The translations under genes were made by a program, and so were the position numbers. The notes beneath the pieces are model-generated. The model had not been told where the DNA came from. It saw only the letters and a program-made list of their open reading frames with translations, and did no database searches. This document shows, piece by piece, positions 1-24,350 of a stretch of 64,000 nucleotides of DNA. The stretch is from Brucella pseudogrignonensis (GTDB lineage Bacteria; Pseudomonadota; Alphaproteobacteria; Rhizobiales; Rhizobiaceae). Position 1 is the stretch's first letter. Each line of letters starts with the position of its first letter. The stretch spans positions 558,001 through 622,000 of the forward strand of contig NZ_NNRM01000017.1 in the NCBI RefSeq assembly GCF_002252525.1, in the 5' to 3' direction.

Positions 1-598
1 AGACGACGAGATAGGCGACCCAGACGATGGTGAGCCAGATATCGACATACCATTCCGGTTCAGCATATTCGCGGCTCTGGGTAATCCCAAGCAGATAGCC
101 GGTTGCAGCCATCACGATGAAAAGCTGATATCCCCAGAACACGAACCAGGCCAGATCACCACCGATCAGGCGCGCGCGACAGGTGCGCTGCACGACATAG
201 AACGACGAAGCGATCAGGATATTGCCGCCGAATGCAAAAACAACCGCTGAAGTGTGCAGCGGGCGCAGACGACCGAAGTTCAGATAGGGTTCAAAGTTGA
301 GATCGGGGAAGGCAAGCTGGGCTGCGATAACCACACCGACCAGAAAGCCAACCACACCCCAGAAGACCGTTGCGATCACGCCGTAGCGGATCGGTCCGTC
401 CATATAGGTGGACTGATCGACCTTCTTTGGCGCAAGGCCGTAATCGGCATTGCGCATCAGCAAGATGGTGAAGATGGCGAGTGTAGCGAACAGAATCCAC
501 ATATGGGTTCTGAACAACTCATCATGAGAAAATCCGGCCAGAAGCACAGCAAAAAGTGCTCCCAGACCAGACAGGACTGTTCCAGCGGCGTAGTTCAT
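1..598 (-). CDS. ccoN: cbb3-type cytochrome c oxidase subunit I, N-terminal part (runs off the left edge)
   Basis: The 199 visible residues are the start of subunit I of a cbb3-type haem-copper oxidase, the inner-membrane terminal oxidase used at low oxygen. Reading from the ATG complementary to 596-598, the protein begins [12 protein letters not shown] and has successive hydrophobic helices. The segment [14 protein letters not shown] contains the early His expected for the low-spin haem of CcoN. The copper-B and haem b3 ligands lie beyond the window, as would ccoO, ccoQ and ccoP. A perfect FNR-type site lies about 90 bp upstream of the start. The gene has no closed frame here because its end is missing; the assignment rests on sequence recognition. 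Confidence 0.9.
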
Positions 599-687
599 TT
601 AATCCCCTCGCAGCGCAAGTCAGAAGCTGTCTGAGTAACGACAGCTATAGCGATGCCTTTCTATCGGCTCTCTACGAGAGGGTGTCA

Positions 688-701
688 TTGATCTAAATCA
701 A
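688..701. promoter_or_regulatory. FNR/FnrN-type site upstream of ccoN
   Basis: The sequence is TTGAT-CTAA-ATCAA, a perfect match to the FNR consensus TTGAT-N4-ATCAA. It is centred about 97 bp upstream of the ccoN start, in the gap between ccoN and the Irr-like gene. FNR/FnrN/FixK proteins activate cbb3 oxidase operons at low oxygen in many alphaproteobacteria, so control of ccoN is the natural reading. Confidence 0.85.
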
Positions 702-746
702 AGAGCTCTAATCGGACCTGCGACGAATTGGGAGTTTTCCGGGAAA

Positions 747-1247
747 TCAGGCGATGTCAGTTTCCGGCACCAGATGGATCAGAACGTCCACTTTGCTGAT
801 CTTGTAGCCAGCAGGCGGAGCGGGCAGCGGGCCAATGCCGATATCGTCTGTTGCAATGTCGATGATCTGGTCTTCGTCGTGGATGTAGAAATGTGCGTGG
901 TCGCCAGTATCCGTATCGAAATAGGTACGTTCGCCATGCAGGCTTATCTTGCGGACAAGGCCCGCATCGGAAAATTGATTGAGCGTGTTGTAAACCGTTG
1001 CAACGGATAGCTTCTCGCCCAGCAGTAATGCTTCTTCATTCAGCATATCCGGGGTCACGTGCCGGTGTTTCTCCGTGAAAAGCATACATCCTAACGCAAT
1101 ACGCTGACGGGTCGGGCGTAACCCGGCCCGTCTTAAAATCGCTTTGACTGCTGTTGTCTGCTGCTTGGCCCATTCCTTGTCAGAACGAGGGACGGTTTCT
1201 GGCAAGAGCTGCGCGGCTTTAGGCCCAGATCGAGGATTAAACAGCAT
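747..1247 (-). CDS. Irr-like Fur-family transcriptional regulator
   Basis: This 166-residue protein belongs to the Fur family, metal- or haem-responsive DNA-binding repressors. The winged-helix part carries LRPTRQRIALG and VATVYNTLNQFSDAGLV. The dimerisation part carries TYFDTDTGDHAHFYIHDED followed by IIDI. This resembles rhizobial Irr, where the corresponding stretch is a His cluster followed by FF..GEN..LDI; here the cluster is reduced to HAH. The N-terminus, of about 38 residues before the conserved start, is longer than in typical Irr. It could be a second Irr paralogue or another Fur-branch regulator, so no symbol is given. It lies upstream of ccoN on the same strand. A TGCAAAT palindrome upstream suggests control by Fur/Mur or by itself. 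Confidence 0.8.
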   Translation of the reverse strand: MLFNPRSGPKAAQLLPETVPRSDKEWAKQQTTAVKAILRRAGLRPTRQRIALGCMLFTEKHRHVTPDMLNEEALLLGEKLSVATVYNTLNQFSDAGLVRKISLHGERTYFDTDTGDHAHFYIHDEDQIIDIATDDIGIGPLPAPPAGYKISKVDVLIHLVPETDIA

Positions 1248-1377: not shown

Positions 1378-2739
1378 TTATGTCGCAGCCTGAGCAGGGA
1401 TGATGAGGAGGGCGCGCAAGCCACCTTCAGAACGATTATGAAGCTGCACTTCACCGCCCATACGCGTTGCCGCCATCTTCACGATGGCCAGACCCAGACC
1501 GCTGCCATTTTCGCTTCTATTGGCACCGCGATAAAAGCGCTCGGTCACATAAGCCATGTCTTCCGGCGGAATGCCGGGGCCATCATCTTCGACAGTGAAA
1601 ACAACCTGATCATCAGCCTTTTCGAGACTGCATCGCACAGACCCGCCTTGAGGCGAATGATTGACGGCATTCTCGATCAGATTACGCATGGCAAGTGTGA
1701 AGAGATGCGGATATTGCATCGTCACAAGCGGCAGATTGCCGGGCAGCTCGATCTTCACGCCCCGATGTGCGGCAAGCATACGCATGTCGGTCGAGATCGA
1801 AACAAGCAGCTGACAGGCTGGCTCCGGCGATGGTGGCTCCATTTCATCACCAGTCTCAAGGGCTGCAAGGTCCAGCAGCTGATTGACGAGACGGCTGGTG
1901 CGATCAACACCCGATGCAATTTGGCGTACTGCATTGAGGCGCATGGCGTCGTCTTTGGCACCCTCGGCGATCTGTGCCTGTGTCTTGAGGCCTGCAAGCG
2001 GCGTCTTCAATTCGTGCGCTGCAAAGATCGCAAAATTGCGCTCGCGCTCGCGGGCTTCTTCCACACGATGGAACAGATCATTCAAAGCCGAAACCACCGG
2101 GCTGATTTCGGACGGCAACTTCTCTTCCGAAAGCGGTCGCAAATCCCGCGCATCGCGTTTGGATAAAGTGCCGGCGAGACTGCTCAACGGATCAAGCCCG
2201 CGCCGGACGCAAAGCCAGATCAGGATAGCAAGAATTGGAAGCAGGAGCAGGGCAGGCAGCACCACACCCGTCACCACGTTTTGCACAAGCCGCTCTCGCA
2301 CTGATAGGCTGTCGCCCACCATCACACGCAGCCCGAGCTTTGTATTTTCAACCGCAAACACCCGCCAGCGGTCCCCAGCAACAACTGTATCTGAAAAGCC
2401 ATTGGCCACATCGGTCAGGCGTTCACCCGGTGCGCTTTCGGACCGTCCAACAAGTCTGCCGTCGATTGCCCAGATCTGGCAGAAAAGCTGGCGATCATAA
2501 TGGGGAAAATCATCCATCGGCTTGAGTGAAAGCTGTCCGCCGTCGCCATCGGGATTAACCTCAACGCGCCGCTCGATCAAAAGCGAATTGACCATACGAG
2601 CCGCTTCCATGAGGCGCGCATCCAGCACTTTTTCAAGTCGCGATTGGGTACTCACATGAATCCAGATAACGGCGAACAACCAGACAAGACAGGTGATGCC
2701 GATCAATATACCGGTCAGGCGACTGCGAATGGAGTTCAT
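1378..2739 (-). CDS. two-component sensor histidine kinase (QseC/TctE-like)
   Basis: This 453-residue inner-membrane kinase senses a periplasmic signal and phosphorylates the response regulator encoded just upstream. An N-terminal membrane helix (about residues 8-28) and a second near residue 160 enclose a sensor loop of about 130 residues. The H-box is AAHELKTPLAGL, with the phosphorylated His near residue 242. The ATPase domain shows NLIENAVNHSP (N box), VEDDGPGIP (G1) and GSGLGLAIVK (G2). The start ATG overlaps the regulator's stop codon as ATGA, so the two are translationally coupled. The signal is unknown; the neighbouring divergent dsbD operon hints at envelope or thiol stress. Confidence 0.93.
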   Translation of the reverse strand: MNSIRSRLTGILIGITCLVWLFAVIWIHVSTQSRLEKVLDARLMEAARMVNSLLIERRVEVNPDGDGGQLSLKPMDDFPHYDRQLFCQIWAIDGRLVGRSESAPGERLTDVANGFSDTVVAGDRWRVFAVENTKLGLRVMVGDSLSVRERLVQNVVTGVVLPALLLLPILAILIWLCVRRGLDPLSSLAGTLSKRDARDLRPLSEEKLPSEISPVVSALNDLFHRVEEARERERNFAIFAAHELKTPLAGLKTQAQIAEGAKDDAMRLNAVRQIASGVDRTSRLVNQLLDLAALETGDEMEPPSPEPACQLLVSISTDMRMLAAHRGVKIELPGNLPLVTMQYPHLFTLAMRNLIENAVNHSPQGGSVRCSLEKADDQVVFTVEDDGPGIPPEDMAYVTERFYRGANRSENGSGLGLAIVKMAATRMGGEVQLHNRSEGGLRALLIIPAQAAT

Positions 2740-3401
2740 GCTTGCTCCCTCGCAAGCCGGTAGCCGACACCGCGCACTGTCTCGATGAAGCCTGAACCAA
2801 GCTTGGATCGCAGATGATGGATATGCACCTCGACCGCGTTGCTTTCGACTTCTTCCTGCCAGCCATAAAGCGCTTCTTCAAGCGATGACTTGGAGATTGT
2901 CGCCGTTGGACGTTCCATTAAACTACGCAATATCGAAAACTCACGGCGGGTCAGGCGGAGCGGCTCACCCTTGTACTGCACCGACATTTCAGCCGGATCG
3001 AGTTCCACGCCCTGCCATTCAAGCGTGCTACTTGCGCGCCCTGTGCCGCGCCGAGCAATGGCACGCACACGCGCTGCGAGTTCATGGAGATCAAACGGCT
3101 TGCCAACATAGTCGTCAGCGCCTGCATCAAGTCCTGCGATACGTTCCGGTACCTGATCGCGGGCGGTCAGCAACAGAACTGGCGTATCATCGCGGGCCTG
3201 TCGCATGGACTTCAGAATGTCGAGACCAGAGCCATCCGGCAGCATCAGATCAAGCACAACCGCGTTGTAATTCTGGGCAGCAAGGGCGGCCTCTGCATCT
3301 CCACAGTTTGCAACGGCATCCACGGTGAATCCGGCTAATCCCAGACCCACGGAAAGTCCGTCGAGCAGGATTGCATCGTCTTCAACCACCAGAATGCGCA
3401 T
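2736..3401 (-). CDS. OmpR-family response regulator (QseB/PmrA-like)
   Basis: A 221-residue response regulator. The receiver domain has the acidic pair EDD at 7-9, the phospho-acceptor Asp51 in VVLDLMLPDG, Thr in LLLTARD and Lys in VGKPFDLHEL. The C-terminal winged-helix domain (about residues 125-218) has RREFSILRSLMERP and a recognition segment around VEVHIHHLRSKLG, ending VRGVGYRLA. It is the first gene of an operon with the kinase and is transcribed away from dsbD. The divergent promoter contains CTTAAG-N5-CTTAAG, the direct-repeat arrangement bound by PmrA/QseB-type regulators, so autoregulation and control of dsbD are likely (inference). Confidence 0.93.
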   Translation of the reverse strand: MRILVVEDDAILLDGLSVGLGLAGFTVDAVANCGDAEAALAAQNYNAVVLDLMLPDGSGLDILKSMRQARDDTPVLLLTARDQVPERIAGLDAGADDYVGKPFDLHELAARVRAIARRGTGRASSTLEWQGVELDPAEMSVQYKGEPLRLTRREFSILRSLMERPTATISKSSLEEALYGWQEEVESNAVEVHIHHLRSKLGSGFIETVRGVGYRLAREQA

Positions 3402-3455
3402 GTGTCTTCCTGTTTCCGCCTTGTTTCATCTGTAAGCGGCTTCTCGCTTTGCCAG

Positions 3456-3472
3456 CTTAAGGCTGCCTTAAG
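3456..3472. promoter_or_regulatory. CTTAAG-N5-CTTAAG direct repeat, candidate response-regulator box
   Basis: Two identical CTTAAG half-sites (3456-3461 and 3467-3472) are separated by five bases, an 11-bp period that puts both on one face of the helix. OmpR-family regulators such as PmrA and QseB bind CTTAA-type half-sites with exactly this spacing. The site lies between the divergent response regulator (start 3401) and dsbD (start 3542). Confidence 0.6.
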
Positions 3473-3541
3473 GTGACGACAGCATTTGCTTTTTACAACC
3501 TAAACTATTTTGCACGAATCAAATTACCCGGAATAACCCGA

Positions 3542-5326
3542 ATGCGCTTTTTCGCGATACTTGCTGCTTTTCTTATGTTTGCTCTTTCACCTGCGCTGGC
3601 TGCAAACCCGCTGCCGGTCGATGATGCTTTTCGTCTAAGTGTTGTGAAGGATGGCGACAACCAGCTCCTGCTTAACTGGCAGATTTCCGACGGTTATTAT
3701 CTCTATCGCGATCATATCGAAGCCAAAGATGCGAAAGGCGCAGCGCTCACCGTTGATACGCAACCGGGTATCGCCAAGGATGATCCGAATTTCGGACGGC
3801 TAGAAGTTTATTACACGCGAGCAAGTGCCAGTGTTCCGGCGGGTAGCGAACCCATTCAGCTGACCTATCAGGGGTGTCAGGAAGACGGTATCTGCTATCG
3901 GCCTGAAACCCGCACGATTGATCCCGTAACGCTCGCCGTCAGCTCTCAGATGGGCAAAGCGTTTACGAACGGCTCCGTGTTCACCGCCGCATCAACTCCC
4001 GCGGCTGAGAGCAAAGCTTTCGCGCTCGCCCCCGAAAAAGGCATGATCGAAAATCTTCTTGATCAGGGCGGTTCGGCACTGGTGATTGCAGCTTTCCTTG
4101 CTTTCGGTGTGCTGCTGGCCTTCACGCCTTGCGTGTTTCCAATCTACCCGATTGTCGCAGGAACGCTGGCGCGGGAAGGCGAAAAACTGACGGCGAAACG
4201 CGGCTTCGTGCTTTCCAGTACTTATGTGTTCAGCCTTGCGCTCGGGTTTGCTGTCGTCGGTGCAATTGCTGGCTGGTCGGGCCAGAATTTGCAAATGGTG
4301 CTGCAATCCAAATGGATGGCGCTTGCACTGGCTGGCATCTTCACACTGCTTGCTCTGTCAATGTTCGGCCTGTTCCAGTTACAGCTCCCATCCTCATGGG
4401 TCAGTGCAATCTCGGCTAAAACCGGCCAACGCACCGGTTCCAAGCGCTCTGCTGCAATCCTCGGCTTTTCCTCGGTGCTGATTGTCGGCCCCTGCGTGAC
4501 TGCACCTCTTGCTGGTGCGCTGCTCTATATCGCACAGACGGCCAACGTAGCACTCGGAGCCAGCGCGCTCTTCGCGCTTGGCATCGGTAAAGGTCTGCCG
4601 TTGATTGCTTTTGCGACGCTGGGTGCTGGCACCTTGCCGCGTGCAGGCGCGTGGATGGAGGCGGTCAAGCAGGTATTCGGCTTTGGTTTTCTCGCAACCG
4701 CGATTTTCATGGCTGCACCCTTGCTGCCATCGGGCGTGGATATGGTTTTATGGGCTTTGCTGCTGTTTGGTGTGGCGAGCTTCGCTTTCCTCAAAATCCC
4801 GGATCGCAGCGTGGTTGCGCGCACGATTGGTACTGCCGCCTTCGTTTATGGCGTTATTCTGATGCTCGGCGTTGCTTCCGGTGGTCGCGATCCATTGCAA
4901 CCGCTGGCGGCATTGGTTAACCGTGACGTTAACCATAATTTGGCCGAGCTTCGATTCGCGCCGGTTGAAACGGTTTCTGCCCTTCAGGAAAAGCTGGATG
5001 CGGCGCGCGGCGATCAGCCGACGCTGGTCTATTTCACGGCAGATTGGTGCGTCAGCTGTTCCACTGTGGAGCGGCGCGTCCTGCCGGATGCAGGCGTGAA
5101 GAAAGCGCTGGGCGGATATCAGCTTATCAAGGCCGATGTCTCGGACCTGAATGCGGGCAATGCCGATCTCATGGCAAAGCTCAAAGTTGCAGGCCCGCCG
5201 ACCATGGTTTTCTTCAACAATGCCAGCAAGGAACCTGAAGGTACACGCTTGGTTGGCGACGTTTCGTCGGCAACAATTGAACGTTCGGTCGGACTCATTA
5301 ACGCCGGCCAGAAGCAAGGCTTTTAG
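3542..5326 (+). CDS. dsbD: thiol:disulfide interchange protein DsbD
   Basis: This 594-residue inner-membrane reductase passes electrons from cytoplasmic thioredoxin to periplasmic thiol proteins. After a signal peptide ending near ALAAN comes the periplasmic alpha domain with the pair C112/C118 (CQEDGICY). The CcdA-like membrane domain has PCVFPIYP near residue 196 and GPCVTAPLAG near 316. The C-terminal thioredoxin domain has WCVSC near residue 502. All three cysteine pairs are present, so the electron relay is complete; the length fits the family. I chose ATG 3542, which begins the signal peptide MRFFAILAAF; an in-frame GTG at 3473 would add 23 unlikely residues. It leads an operon with an L,D-transpeptidase and a CPYC thioredoxin-fold protein. 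Confidence 0.95.
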   Translation: MRFFAILAAFLMFALSPALAANPLPVDDAFRLSVVKDGDNQLLLNWQISDGYYLYRDHIEAKDAKGAALTVDTQPGIAKDDPNFGRLEVYYTRASASVPAGSEPIQLTYQGCQEDGICYRPETRTIDPVTLAVSSQMGKAFTNGSVFTAASTPAAESKAFALAPEKGMIENLLDQGGSALVIAAFLAFGVLLAFTPCVFPIYPIVAGTLAREGEKLTAKRGFVLSSTYVFSLALGFAVVGAIAGWSGQNLQMVLQSKWMALALAGIFTLLALSMFGLFQLQLPSSWVSAISAKTGQRTGSKRSAAILGFSSVLIVGPCVTAPLAGALLYIAQTANVALGASALFALGIGKGLPLIAFATLGAGTLPRAGAWMEAVKQVFGFGFLATAIFMAAPLLPSGVDMVLWALLLFGVASFAFLKIPDRSVVARTIGTAAFVYGVILMLGVASGGRDPLQPLAALVNRDVNHNLAELRFAPVETVSALQEKLDAARGDQPTLVYFTADWCVSCSTVERRVLPDAGVKKALGGYQLIKADVSDLNAGNADLMAKLKVAGPPTMVFFNNASKEPEGTRLVGDVSSATIERSVGLINAGQKQGF

Positions 5327-5363
5327 GATTGATCATGGCTCGGGGACATTGGGGTTGGGGAAA

Positions 5364-6149
5364 TTGACGACATATAATCAAATTGCAAAGGCAGCGCCGT
5401 CTCTGGCGCGGCTGATATTGATTGGCCTTATGCCTTTGGCAGTTGCGGCCTGTACTACGACATCCGACAGGCCTGTCGTTGTTAACATGCCCGAACCAGC
5501 GGTCGTCGCACCTGAGCCAGTGGCTGTTGCACCTGTCGTTGAGCCTCTACCGGAGCCGGAAGTTCAGACGGCAAAGAGCGAATATGAAGTGATGTACGGT
5601 GCTGTCACCGACGGCGGCAATCACATTGCAGCACTCGATCTCAGTAAGATTGCCGAACGCAATCTTCGCAAGCAGGTCGATTATCAGACCAGCCACCCGG
5701 TCGGCACAATCATTGTCGATCCCTATACGCGCTATCTTTATCTCGTGCAGCCCGGTGGCAAGGCCATGCGCTATTCCGTTGGCGTGGGCCGTGCTGGCCT
5801 GACCTTCAGCGGCGAGGCGCAGGTTGCTTACAAGGCGCAATGGCCACGCTGGACACCAACGCAGAATATGATCAAGCGCAATCCTGATCATTATGCGAAA
5901 TACGCCAATGGTCTGGAAGGCGGCATTCGCAATCCGCTCGGCGCGCGTGCGCTCTATCTTTATCGCGATGGCAAAGACACGCTTTATCGCATCCATGGCA
6001 CCAACGAACCCTGGTCAATCGGCAAGGCTGCTTCGTCGGGCTGTATCCGTCTTTTCAATCAGGACATTCTCGATCTTCATAAACGCGTATCCAGTGGAAG
6101 CCGCGTTGTGGTCCTGAGCAAGACTCAATCTGCACAAGGAGAAAGCTGA
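5364..6149 (+). CDS. L,D-transpeptidase (YkuD domain) lipoprotein
   Basis: A 261-residue periplasmic L,D-transpeptidase, forming 3-3 cross-links in peptidoglycan or attaching proteins to it. From the TTG at 5364 a signal peptide leads to a lipobox, LAVAAC, followed by a proline/valine-rich linker of about 40 residues. The YkuD domain begins near VGTIIVDPYTRYLYLV and carries the catalytic motif HGTNEPWSIGKAASSGCIRL with its nucleophilic Cys. Reading frame continues upstream into dsbD but is non-coding there; GGGG just before TTG 5364 is the best ribosome site available. It follows dsbD by 37 bp and overlaps the next gene by one base (TGATG), so it is part of the dsbD operon. The reduced active-site Cys is a plausible DsbD client. 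Confidence 0.87.
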   Translation: MTTYNQIAKAAPSLARLILIGLMPLAVAACTTTSDRPVVVNMPEPAVVAPEPVAVAPVVEPLPEPEVQTAKSEYEVMYGAVTDGGNHIAALDLSKIAERNLRKQVDYQTSHPVGTIIVDPYTRYLYLVQPGGKAMRYSVGVGRAGLTFSGEAQVAYKAQWPRWTPTQNMIKRNPDHYAKYANGLEGGIRNPLGARALYLYRDGKDTLYRIHGTNEPWSIGKAASSGCIRLFNQDILDLHKRVSSGSRVVVLSKTQSAQGES

Positions 6150-6763
6150 TGATGAACCGCCGCCAGATGCTCGCTACAACTGTAGCCGGTGCCGCAACGA
6201 TTGCCATTTCTGGCGGCGAGAGCTTCGCCCAGCGTGTGCCGACAGTGGCCGATGTCCTTTATGACAAGGAAATCCCGGTCCTTGGTAATCCTAACGGCAA
6301 CGTCACCATTGTGGAATATTTCGACTATCAGTGCCCTTACTGCAAAAAGGGCCATGCTGAGCTGATGCGCGTTGTCGAGAAAGACGGCAATGTGCGTCTG
6401 GTGCTCAAAGACTGGATCATTTTCGGTGACAATTCGGCCTATCCGGCGCGTCTGGTGCTGGCGGCAGAAAAGTCGGGAAATTACGTCAAGGCTATGGAAG
6501 CCATGATGCTGACGCCCGGTCGTCTGACCAAAGATCAGACCGATGCAGCCTTGAAGAAGGGTGGCCTTGATCCGAAGAAGCTTGAGGCCGATTACAAGGC
6601 GGATGCTGCGCGGATCGACGGCATTCTTGCGCGCAACATGGAGCAGGGCGAAGCGTTCAATTTTGGCGGTACGCCGTCCTTCGTTATCGGCACCCGGCTT
6701 TACGGAGGCGTGATGAACGAGCGGAGCCTGATCGACGCGATCAAGGAAGCGCGGAAGGCTTAA
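6149..6763 (+). CDS. DsbA/ScsC-like thioredoxin-fold protein, CPYC active site
   Basis: A 204-residue exported thiol protein. The N-terminus NRRQMLATTVAGAATIAISG looks like a twin-arginine signal. The mature part has VEYFDYQCPYCKKGH, a CPYC redox site, an inserted helical domain, and the cis-proline loop GGTPSFVIG near residue 176. Thr before the cis-proline is typical of DsbC/DsbG and ScsC rather than of DsbA. Its start overlaps the transpeptidase stop, so it is translated with it and downstream of dsbD. Working as a DsbD-fed reductase or isomerase for the transpeptidase is an inference from context; an oxidase role is also possible. Confidence 0.85.
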   Translation: MMNRRQMLATTVAGAATIAISGGESFAQRVPTVADVLYDKEIPVLGNPNGNVTIVEYFDYQCPYCKKGHAELMRVVEKDGNVRLVLKDWIIFGDNSAYPARLVLAAEKSGNYVKAMEAMMLTPGRLTKDQTDAALKKGGLDPKKLEADYKADAARIDGILARNMEQGEAFNFGGTPSFVIGTRLYGGVMNERSLIDAIKEARKA

Positions 6764-6851
6764 AGCGGTCGCAAAATTTGAAAGCAAGCAGCGGAGTGTT
6801 GTCAGTCTTGTTAAGCGTTAGCTTTCCTTCATAGTAAGAAGGATAACGGAC

Positions 6852-7946
6852 ATGAACCTGATGACACGCACGCTGACAAGCAACAATGACACTGATGAAA
6901 GCCGCTGGCTAAAAGTGCTGGCGCGCGACAAGGCATCAGATGGCGAATTCGTTTACGCTGTACGCACGACGGGCGTTTATTGCCGTCCATCGTGCCCGTC
7001 GCGGCGTGGCAAACGCGAAAATGTTCAGTTCTTTATGGTGGCCGAAGATGCAGAGCGGGCTGGCTTTCGCCCTTGTATGCGATGCAAGCCGCATGTCGAT
7101 GTAACGCTTGATGCACAAAACAGTGCGCGCTATGCCGATATGGTTTCCGCCGCTTGCCGCTTCATCGAGAATGCCGATGAAGTTCCCGCGCTGGAAGACA
7201 TTGCGCGTGCTGCAGGGGCAAGTCCGGCTCATTTCCATCGCATTTTCAAAAGCTTCACAGGTCTCACGCCTAAAGCCTATGCTGATGCGCATCGTGCAGA
7301 GAAAATGCGCGCCGCCCTTAAATCCAGTGATAGCCGCGTGACGGATGCAATTTACGAAGCGGGTTACAATTCTTCCAGCCGCTTCTATGAGGCCTCAGAT
7401 AAGATACTCGGCATGAAACCAAAGGCCTTTAAGTCTGGCGGCGAAAACGAAACCATCCGCTTTGCCATCGGACAATCCACACTTGGCGCCGTTCTGGTAG
7501 CGGAAAGCGGCAAGGGGGTCTGCGCCATTCTGATGGGCGATGATCCGCAGGAGCTGATTATCGATCTGGAAAAGCGGTTTCCGAAAGCGCAGCTCGTCGG
7601 TGCTGATCGCGACTTCGAGGATCACATTGCTCAGGTGATCGGCTTTGTTGAAAACCCCGGCATCGGATTCGATCTGCCTCTTGATTTAAGAGGCACAGCT
7701 TTCCAGCAGCGTGTCTGGCAAGCCTTGCGCGAAATCCCGCTTGGCAAAACTGTAAGCTATAGCGAACTCGCCGAGAGGATCGGTTCGCCAAAATCCACCA
7801 GAGCTGTGGCGCAGGCATGTGGTGCCAACAAGATCGCCGTTGCGGTGCCCTGCCATCGCGTTGTGCGCAATGATGGTGGCTTGTCCGGTTATCGCTGGGG
7901 CGTTGAACGCAAGCGGGATCTGATCGAAAGAGAGCGCCAGTCATGA
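6852..7946 (+). CDS. ada: Ada: bifunctional DNA repair methyltransferase and AraC-type activator
   Basis: A 364-residue protein that repairs alkylated DNA and switches on the adaptive response. The N-terminal zinc domain has TTGVYCRPSCPSRRGKREN and FRPCMRCKP; one of these Cys accepts methyl from phosphotriesters. An AraC-type DNA-binding domain follows (SPAHFHRIFKSFTGLTPKAY). The C-terminal O6-alkylguanine transferase has AVPCHRVVRNDGGLSGYRWG with the acceptor Cys near residue 333. All parts of the E. coli-type protein are present. It overlaps the following oxygenase gene by four bases, which suggests co-expression in alkylation repair. Confidence 0.95.
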   Translation: MNLMTRTLTSNNDTDESRWLKVLARDKASDGEFVYAVRTTGVYCRPSCPSRRGKRENVQFFMVAEDAERAGFRPCMRCKPHVDVTLDAQNSARYADMVSAACRFIENADEVPALEDIARAAGASPAHFHRIFKSFTGLTPKAYADAHRAEKMRAALKSSDSRVTDAIYEAGYNSSSRFYEASDKILGMKPKAFKSGGENETIRFAIGQSTLGAVLVAESGKGVCAILMGDDPQELIIDLEKRFPKAQLVGADRDFEDHIAQVIGFVENPGIGFDLPLDLRGTAFQQRVWQALREIPLGKTVSYSELAERIGSPKSTRAVAQACGANKIAVAVPCHRVVRNDGGLSGYRWGVERKRDLIERERQS

Positions 7947-23811: not shown

Positions 23812-24350
23812 GGCATGATGGTAATCGGGGTGCCATTTGGCACCTTGGACCATATTTCGCGCATTTCAGCATTGGTCACGCCGATGCAGCCATCCGTCCA
23901 GTCCCAAAGGTGATGCACCGGTGCAAGCAAGCCCCAACCATTGGGCAAGCCGTGGATCATGATATTGCCGCCGGGCGAATACCCGGCCGCATCGGCGGCG
24001 TTCTGATCTGCTGCATTCGGGTAGGAAACATGCAAGCTCAGATGTGCCATTGAGCGCGGATTGCGCCAGTCGATGATGTAAGCGCCTTCGGGCGTCTTCT
24101 GATCACCTTCGCGCGCCTTGTGTCCTCCATCGCCATTCCCACCAAGCGCAATGCGATATGTGCCAATCACGGCGCCATCCCGAAGCAGGGTCATCCGGCG
24201 TTCGCCTTTATTGACCTCTATGGCATCGGCTTGTTGTTCGGCGGGAGCAGGCTGCGGTGGTTCGCCAGAACCAATGCGCGCCATAACCTTTGTATAGCCA
24301 AACAAAGCAACAGCGATGACAACGACAGCGAAGAGGATTTTCTTGATCAT
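23808..24350 (-). CDS. L,D-transpeptidase family protein (YkuD domain)
   Basis: A 180-residue exported or membrane-anchored protein. Residues 3-20 (KKILFAVVVIAVALFGYT) form a hydrophobic anchor; a short Pro/Ala/Gln linker follows. The YkuD domain has NKGERRMTLLRDGAVIGTY and the catalytic region IMIHGLPNG followed by HLWDWTDGCIGVTNAEM with the nucleophilic Cys. The C-terminal TPITIMP is typical of the family. It is distinct from the lipoprotein L,D-transpeptidase at 5.4 kb. The shorter form with DWTDGCIGV may act as a cross-linker or as a carboxypeptidase; the sequence does not decide. Confidence 0.88.
   Translation of the reverse strand: MIKKILFAVVVIAVALFGYTKVMARIGSGEPPQPAPAEQQADAIEVNKGERRMTLLRDGAVIGTYRIALGGNGDGGHKAREGDQKTPEGAYIIDWRNPRSMAHLSLHVSYPNAADQNAADAAGYSPGGNIMIHGLPNGWGLLAPVHHLWDWTDGCIGVTNAEMREIWSKVPNGTPITIMP

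What the first reader, a model, noticed from the sequence alone, without database searches (positions are those of the whole stretch)
3401..6763. dsbD, a Cys-dependent L,D-transpeptidase and a CPYC thioredoxin in one operon facing a two-component system
Seen: dsbD (all three Cys pairs), a lipoprotein L,D-transpeptidase with nucleophile SGCIRL, and a DsbC/ScsC-like CPYC protein are tightly linked (37-bp gap, then one-base overlap), divergent from a two-component system. Known: in E. coli, DsbG, fed by DsbD, keeps the single Cys of L,D-transpeptidases reduced. Inferred: this is a self-contained reductase-partner-client module that protects a cell-wall cross-linking enzyme from oxidation, under signal control. 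A linked module of this kind is not one I recall being described.
Basis: partly seen in the sequence, partly recalled or inferred. Interest (0 to 1): 0.75.

Follow-up and report, generated by a model that had tools for sequence, protein, structure and literature searches.

The report
Copper-type thiol regulon including cell-wall crosslinkers
A gene cluster pairs a cysteine-based two-component sensor and a thiol-repair relay, both of a kind known from copper defence, with an enzyme that cross-links the bacterial cell wall through a vulnerable cysteine; the pairing recurs in related bacteria and suggests they guard or rebuild their wall when cysteines are under attack.

Summary
In detail: dsbD, a YkuD L,D-transpeptidase (LDT) and a CPYC thioredoxin-fold protein ("DsbX") form one apparent operon, divergent from a two-component system. 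Of 80 named relatives picked by DsbX, 48 have dsbD or the regulator nearby; 43 of these carry an LDT, against 2 of the other 32. A rare box, CTTAAG-N5-CTTAAG, is found in 39 of 40 loci with the regulator and 2 of 40 without. In 25 further regions, 34 of 42 boxes adjoin dsb, LDT or regulator genes; in the window's genome the other two precede a second LDT and a multicopper oxidase. The kinase has an invariant periplasmic Cys (41 of 41) that 13 of 13 sister kinases lack at that place. These features match DsbRS-dsbDEG, a published copper-sensing system of Pseudomonas seen here through citing papers, so that half is known. LDTs as members of the regulon were not found in the paper searches made. 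Best reading: attack on periplasmic cysteines (copper likeliest, reactive sulfur a rival) induces a reducing relay plus fresh LDT. That DsbX reduces the LDT Cys is inferred only.

The parts
1378..2739 (-). DsbS-like sensor histidine kinase (2CSK_N, HisKA, HATPase_c; HAMP below its cut-off); invariant periplasmic Cys87 in RQL-x-CQIW (codon 2479-2481)
2736..3401 (-). DsbR-like response regulator (best NCBIfam models PmrA and QseB, below their cut-offs), overlaps kinase gene by 4 bases
3456..3472 (.). Proposed regulator box CTTAAG-GCTGC-CTTAAG, between the divergent units; one of three perfect copies in the genome
3542..5326 (+). dsbD, 594 aa, three Cys pairs (longer ORF from GTG 3473 less likely)
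5364..6149 (+). L,D-transpeptidase (YkuD), probable lipoprotein (VAAC lipobox by eye), TTG start, catalytic Cys codon 6042-6044 (SSGCIRL)
6149..6763 (+). DsbX: DsbA-fold thioredoxin-like protein, CPYC (Cys62, Cys65) with Thr175-Pro176; 3gyk / ScsC / alpha-DsbA2 group

Best explanation
This is the alphaproteobacterial form of the DsbRS regulon (a copper-sensing kinase/regulator pair that induces periplasmic thiol-reduction genes), in which L,D-transpeptidases have become regular members. An agent that attacks periplasmic cysteines (copper most likely; reactive sulfur species or oxidants possible) acts on Cys87 of the sensor. The phosphorylated regulator binds CTTAAG-N5-CTTAAG and switches on dsbD-LDT-dsbX and, elsewhere in the genome, a second LDT and a multicopper oxidase. 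DsbD brings electrons across the inner membrane to DsbX (in many relatives also to an LGT-TlpA fusion or DsbG), which keep exposed cysteines, among them the catalytic Cys of the LDTs, reduced, while fresh LDT replaces enzyme already poisoned. Shown by sequence: the gene set, its conservation, the box and its neighbours, the sensor Cys, the domain make-up. Inferred: regulator-box binding, the signal, electron flow, and LDT as direct client of DsbX.
For: Gene set TCS, dsbD, (tlpA), LDT, dsbX recurs in Hyphomicrobiales and Rhodobacterales: LDT in 43 of 48 loci with dsbD or the regulator, 2 of 32 without. Three annotated plasmid copies have the full order TCS <-> dsbD-tlpA-LDT-dsbA, two have rearranged sets, and one plasmid shows an LDT as the sole detected divergent partner of the TCS. 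Box in 39 of 40 regulator-bearing loci, 2 of 40 others; in 9 of 14 family genomes that I chose as having a close DsbX and 3 of the other 47. Of 42 boxes in 25 regions, 34 adjoin a dsbD, dsbX, dsbG, LDT or TCS gene. Own-genome targets: second LDT, multicopper oxidase. Sensor Cys in 41 of 41 module kinases versus 0 of 13 sister kinases at that place; also in 6 of 6 kinases from such loci in other classes, in L279 at residue 82. Published: DsbRS of P. aeruginosa is copper-responsive and induces dsbDEG (passages); DsbG of E. coli protects single-Cys transpeptidases (passage); LDTs fully inhibited in vitro by Cu2+ (passage).
Against: No expression, binding or redox data. LGT-TlpA and DsbG, part of the Pseudomonas operon, are missing from the window's locus. 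DsbX could be an isomerase or oxidase. Several copies sit beside sulfide/persulfide genes (BigR, Blh, YeeE, TauE), which fits another signal. 32 of 80 DsbX loci have neither dsbD nor regulator, and 30 of those no LDT. In six loci from other classes with the TCS block no LDT was found in the stretch read. Eight of 42 boxes precede other genes. Five of 14 family genomes with a close DsbX have no perfect box.
Confidence: 0.66

Rival explanations
1. Same circuit, but the physiological signal is reactive sulfur (sulfide, polysulfide, thiosulfate/tetrathionate) that modifies cysteines of the sensor and of LDTs; the relay removes the modification.
For: Plasmid copies in Pseudorhizobium, Agrobacterium and Bosea lie beside Blh/YeeE-YedE/TauE genes (BigR in the first two), and tlpA-dsbG on a Pseudomonas plasmid beside ArsR/YeeE/TauE; Blh-like match near 7 of 48 module loci (4 at 49% identity or more, 3 at 25-28%) versus 1 of 32 others; Acinetobacter copy near TauE and cytochrome d oxidase genes; Blh and YeeE matches in L293; a box before cytochrome c and SoxA/TsdA-like genes in Paracoccus; DsrE gene in Pseudochrobactrum.
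Against: Sulfur genes are near only a minority of loci; the published Pseudomonas system answers copper; an own-genome box precedes a multicopper oxidase.
Confidence: 0.25
2. LDT is only co-induced for wall strengthening under copper or envelope stress and is not a client of DsbX/DsbD; the relay serves other proteins (cytochrome oxidase maturation, copper chaperones, general disulfide repair).
For: Four boxes in Rhodobacterales precede COX1/FixO-type oxidase genes; ccoN/ccoO-like matches lie near the TCS in L063-L069; TlpA of Bradyrhizobium serves oxidase maturation (passage).
Against: The LDT gene lies within 250 bp of dsbX in 34 of 48 loci; single-Cys transpeptidases are known DsbG clients in E. 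coli.
Confidence: 0.3
3. DsbX is an oxidase or disulfide isomerase, not a reductase, and DsbD feeds something else.
For: DsbA fold, single domain; nearest characterised relatives include Caulobacter and Proteus ScsC, reported as trimeric isomerases (passages).
Against: dsbD lies near dsbX in 42 of 80 loci; CPYC with Thr before Pro, the DsbG/ScsC pattern (meaning recalled); no dsbB seen in the operon; lacks the long N-terminal trimerisation region.
Confidence: 0.15
4. Chance neighbours or simple inherited synteny.
For: LDTs are numerous (13 YkuD matches in this genome).
Against: Rearranged orders keep the same gene set, and split units have their own boxes (L056, L195, L200, L202).
Confidence: 0.02

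Closest known systems
DsbRS - dsbDEG copper-sensing system, Pseudomonas (Yu et al. 2022, Sci Bull; primary paper not held, known here from passages of PMC13101516 and PMC10141476)
   Same: Kinase/regulator pair next to and divergent from a dsbD operon; TlpA/DsbE and DsbG in some alphaproteobacterial copies; sensor Cys (its Cys82 role and the site TTA-N8-TTAA are recalled; both fit: Cys82 in L279, and the box reads as TTA-N8-TTAA)
   Different: Alphaproteobacterial copies usually add one or more LDTs and carry DsbX, in some beside or instead of DsbG; box stricter, CTTAAG-N5-CTTAAG; the window copy lacks TlpA and DsbG
E. coli DsbD-DsbG protection of transpeptidases (Depuydt et al. 2009, via a passage of PMC3526765)
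   Same: DsbD-fed CPYC protein and single-Cys transpeptidase clients
   Different: Genes not linked in one operon (recalled); DsbG has a dimerisation domain, DsbX does not; here next to a dedicated TCS
ScsB/ScsC of Caulobacter, Proteus, Salmonella
   Same: Fold and sequence group of DsbX; copper link; membrane reductant plus periplasmic partner
   Different: Classical DsbD instead of ScsB; no long N-terminal trimerisation region; LDT in operon
PmrAB / QseBC two-component family
   Same: Domain make-up; TTAA-repeat box type (recalled)
   Different: Scores below the NCBIfam cut-offs; invariant Cys in sensor domain

Membership tests
DsbRS-dsbDEG regulon | TCS divergent from dsbD | tested here: met
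DsbRS-dsbDEG regulon | Cys in kinase sensor domain (role recalled) | tested here: met
DsbRS-dsbDEG regulon | TTA-N8-TTAA site at dsbD promoter (recalled) | tested here: met
DsbRS-dsbDEG regulon | dsbE/TlpA and dsbG in the operon | tested here: not met
   absent at the window locus; LGT-TlpA in 31 of 80 relatives' loci, DsbG in some
DsbRS-dsbDEG regulon | Copper-responsive signalling and induction | not testable with these tools
   needs experiment
DsbG / DsbC | N-terminal dimerisation domain (DsbC_N) | tested here: not met
   no DsbC_N match, none in the model
DsbG / DsbC | CXXC with Thr-Pro loop | tested here: met
   both Cys and T175-P176 invariant in 42 sequences
ScsC | DsbA-like catalytic domain similar to ScsC structures | tested here: met
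   7rgv E 2e-39 by profile, 6.6e-13 by fold
ScsC | N-terminal trimerisation helix | tested here: not met
   residues 6-26 low confidence and only a 5-residue helix before the domain; Salmonella ScsC also lacks it
ScsC | ScsB partner | tested here: not met
   operon partner is DsbD by NCBIfam; the only other DsbD_TM match in the genome lies in a 267-aa frame
DsbD | alpha, beta, gamma domains with Cys pairs | tested here: met
YkuD L,D-transpeptidase | Catalytic domain with SxGC[IV]R motif | tested here: met
YkuD L,D-transpeptidase | Cross-linking or protein-anchoring activity | not testable with these tools
   needs biochemistry

The most novel reading that the evidence does not exclude
Alphaproteobacteria run a dedicated wall-protection programme: a Cys-based copper (or sulfur) sensor controls several classes of L,D-transpeptidase together with a private reductant (DsbX), making the LDT catalytic cysteine the main periplasmic copper/thiol-stress target that the regulon evolved to defend.
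Probability: 0.4. Interest if true: 0.8.

Novelty: new variant of a known kind. Interest (0 to 1): 0.62.

Why it matters
Copper inhibition of LDTs is published and DsbG was known to guard single-Cys transpeptidases, but no regulon tying copper/thiol sensing to LDTs turned up in the searches made. At least one of the Hyphomicrobiales, Agrobacterium tumefaciens, depends on LDTs for fitness and polar growth (title and abstract start of PMC11527210), so the regulon offers a testable account of how such a wall survives copper or sulfide. The box also gives a short candidate target list for any alphaproteobacterial genome.

Tried and rejected
Rejected: chance adjacency (rearranged gene sets; counts); DsbC/DsbG identity of DsbX (no dimerisation domain); the degenerate PmrA box YTTAAK-N5-YTTAAK as predictor (10 strand hits against 11 for the reversed control; only the strict form is informative). 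Tried to show that regulon LDTs arose more than once: they form several clusters, but a single origin is not rejected (p-AU 0.348), so it is not claimed. Kinase sensor model poor (pLDDT 64), not used. Rfam and tRNA scans of the window empty. Promoter and terminator scan of 3300-6900 near shuffle level. Paper searches for a linked LDT-Dsb operon, the Pseudomonas genes, copper and LDT, or a sulfur-sensing Dsb regulon: (one search failed). None of the listings seen names an LDT-Dsb operon; two searches listed 15 of 28 and 30 of 211 papers. The main text of the A. tumefaciens LDT paper (PMC11527210) holds none of 'copper', 'disulfide', 'operon', 'DsbD'.

An automatic alignment gave Ser for the Acinetobacter kinase position; reading the protein showed Cys in the same ACQV motif.

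One of the 48 'module' loci (L101) rests on a dsbD-like match of 26% identity; one search used my own list of 48, which has L109 in place of L101. The 14 'close DsbX' genomes were chosen by hand: 13 with E 5.3e-32 or better plus G050 (43% identity over a partial match), while G007 and others with weaker whole matches went to the 47. The 34 genomes are 33 of the 48 module loci plus L109. Of their 65 boxes, those in 25 chosen regions (42 boxes) were read, chosen mainly because they lie outside the known locus. The LDT test left out 15 of 89 rows (long branches, near copies, odd copies).
Full report
WHAT IS THERE. The window locus (genome contig C8) holds, reading outward from a shared intergenic region: to the left a response regulator and a sensor kinase; to the right dsbD, a YkuD L,D-transpeptidase (LDT) and a CPYC thioredoxin-fold protein, here called DsbX. 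The likelier dsbD start is ATG 3542. The seven nearest named loci (Brucella, Ochrobactrum, Paenochrobactrum and two unnamed Rhizobiales isolates) are 72-85% identical in DsbX.

CONSERVATION. Among 61 genomes of the GTDB family searched with DsbX, I took 14 as having a close DsbX (13 with E 5.3e-32 or better, plus G050 with a partial match of 43% identity). In their neighbourhoods the same genes recur, often rearranged: same order in G016; dsbX-tlpA-dsbD facing LDT-regulator-kinase-dsbX in G040 and G049; dsbX and LDT facing the TCS with dsbD elsewhere on the contig in G027; LDT, dsbX-LDT, TCS and dsbD-tlpA as separate units in G030. In several others (for instance G013, G037, G051) DsbX has no such neighbours in the stretch read. 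A scan of one genome per species gave 80 named loci, the best of 577 relatives: 58 Hyphomicrobiales, 22 Rhodobacterales. 48 have dsbD or the regulator; of these 43 hold an LDT and 34 have it within 250 bp of dsbX. Of the other 32 (23 of them Bradyrhizobium, Afipia or Agrobacterium vitis), 2 hold an LDT. A common full form is TCS facing dsbD-tlpA-LDT-dsbX, where 'tlpA' is an LGT-like membrane part fused to a TlpA/redoxin domain; this gene was found in 31 of 80 loci and not in the Brucella/Ochrobactrum loci L063-L068. Three annotated plasmid copies show that full order under the names DsbD, TlpA, L,D-transpeptidase, DsbA family protein; a Sphingobium and a Bosea plasmid carry the set rearranged.

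THE BOX. CTTAAG-N5-CTTAAG lies between the divergent units at 3456-3472. In 41 loci with the regulator, 33 have a perfect copy within about 330 bp upstream of the called regulator start, 34 with at most one mismatch, against 41 of 1600 random 391-bp windows at the one-mismatch level. Over whole loci it is present in 39 of 40 with the regulator and 2 of 40 without. Genome-wide: 3 places in the window's genome; 9 of the 14 family genomes with close DsbX; 3 of the remaining 47; 33 of 34 genomes reached through named loci, 65 boxes in all. In the window's genome the other two boxes stand 93 bp before a second LDT gene and 25 bp before the called start of a small ORF that is followed by a multicopper oxidase gene. 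In 25 chosen regions of other genomes, 34 of 42 boxes adjoin dsbD, dsbX, true dsbG, LDT or TCS genes, and 19 of 42 have an LDT as first gene on one side. The 8 exceptions: COX1/FixO-type oxidase genes (4, one of them shared with a 5'-nucleotidase-like gene), another 5'-nucleotidase-like gene, lgt, a cytochrome c pair with a SoxA/TsdA-like part, and a LacI-type regulator. Where the set is split, the parts have boxes of their own (G030; G070, G079, G092). That the regulator binds the box is inferred from this co-occurrence and from its PmrA/QseB-like family.

THE SENSOR. The kinase's periplasmic domain has one invariant Cys (Cys87): 41 of 41 module kinases. In 12 genomes searched for the same sensor family, 21 matches were found: 8 module kinases, all with Cys there, and 13 others, all with Tyr at the aligned place, 12 of these 13 without any Cys in the domain.

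WHAT IS KNOWN. A 2026 paper on P. fluorescens (passages of PMC13101516) and a review (passage of PMC10141476) state that DsbRS of P. aeruginosa is a copper-responsive TCS that induces dsbDEG; the primary paper is not held. From recall, not from a call: its Cys82 is critical for copper binding and its site is TTA-N8-TTAA. Both fit here: in a dsbDEG-type locus from another class (L279) the Cys is residue 82 counted from the GTG start, and CTTAAG-N5-CTTAAG reads as TTA-N8-TTAA. Of 20 regions fetched from outside the class, five (L276, L279, L284, L287, L293) show regulator, kinase and dsbD with tlpA, four of them with dsbG; with four LDT queries none of the five shows an LDT in its 13-16 kb. The Acinetobacter plasmid copy is the same, with dsbG and no LDT. 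All six kinases have the Cys, and four of the six intergenic regions show TTAA pairs 11 bp apart, the spacing of the box.

WHY LDT. Three published points make the addition sensible: the transpeptidases work through one Cys and DsbG of E. coli protects them from sulfenylation (passage of PMC3526765); and Cu2+ fully inhibited a 1,3-LDT in vitro, 'as for' 3,3-LDTs (passage of PMC10864386; title of Peters et al. 2018 seen in reference lists). A copper-sensing regulon that makes both a reductant and new LDT is therefore coherent. Regulon LDTs fall in several clusters: operon type, a second type (17-row group, 97% local support), a short Rhodobacterales type (14-row group, 100%), but a single origin is not rejected (p-AU 0.348).

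DsbX. The model is confident (pLDDT 89) and shows one DsbA-fold domain. Nearest solved chains: 3gyk (Silicibacter pomeroyi), Caulobacter ScsC, Wolbachia alpha-DsbA2, Salmonella and Proteus ScsC. ScsC proteins are linked to copper resistance (passages). The two active-site Cys and Thr-Pro are invariant in 42 sequences. Two related paralogs in the genome carry CSHC and CGYC. Reductase, isomerase and copper carrier all remain open.

SIGNAL. For copper: the published system, the multicopper oxidase behind a box, the ScsC kinship. For reactive sulfur: BigR, Blh, YeeE/YedE and TauE genes beside several plasmid copies and a minority of chromosomal ones (Blh match near 7 of 48, only 4 of them at 49% identity or more). 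Both attack thiols; the sequence cannot decide.

LIMITS. All functional statements are inferences from gene content, conservation and papers on other species. Loci were picked by DsbX similarity and are not independent. G050 has a box before an LDT but no module kinase was found in it.

Noticed in passing
window 1-1247: Start of a ccoN-like (cbb3 oxidase) gene and an irr iron-response regulator gene lie next to the kinase; loci L063-L069 also show ccoN/ccoO-like matches near the kinase.
   Followed up: partly
window about 23817-24224 (-): Another YkuD L,D-transpeptidase domain, one of 13 in this genome; not among the 9 matches found with the operon LDT.
   Followed up: no
L144 5342-7468: Box 25 bp before a 136-aa ORF without Pfam match, followed by a multicopper oxidase gene: a candidate copper target of the same regulator.
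   Followed up: partly
L191 4058-5026 (genome of Brucella pecoris locus L063): A box stands about 106 bp before lgt, the lipoprotein diacylglyceryl transferase gene; many regulon LDTs look like lipoproteins.
   Followed up: no
L059 4383-7312, L060 2109-5344: A different LDT cluster without TCS nearby: LDT - DsbA-like - prolyl isomerase (parvulin type by Pfam in L059) - LDT.
   Followed up: no
L205 5176-7656: Box before a cytochrome c gene and a SoxA/TsdA-like cytochrome c gene in the genome of Paracoccus aminovorans locus L104, a hint of thiosulfate chemistry.
   Followed up: no
L209 5029: Box about 50 bp before a LacI-type regulator gene in the genome of Pseudooceanicola locus L127, unexplained.
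   Followed up: no
L306 7653-10383 (Rhodobacter sp. CZR27 plasmid): Minimal form: the TCS with box faces a single LDT, no dsb gene detected in the 19 kb read.
   Followed up: no
L308 8287-10335 (Methylosinus trichosporium OB3b plasmid): TCS with box beside transposase genes and with no dsb or LDT match in the stretch, apparently orphaned.
   Followed up: no
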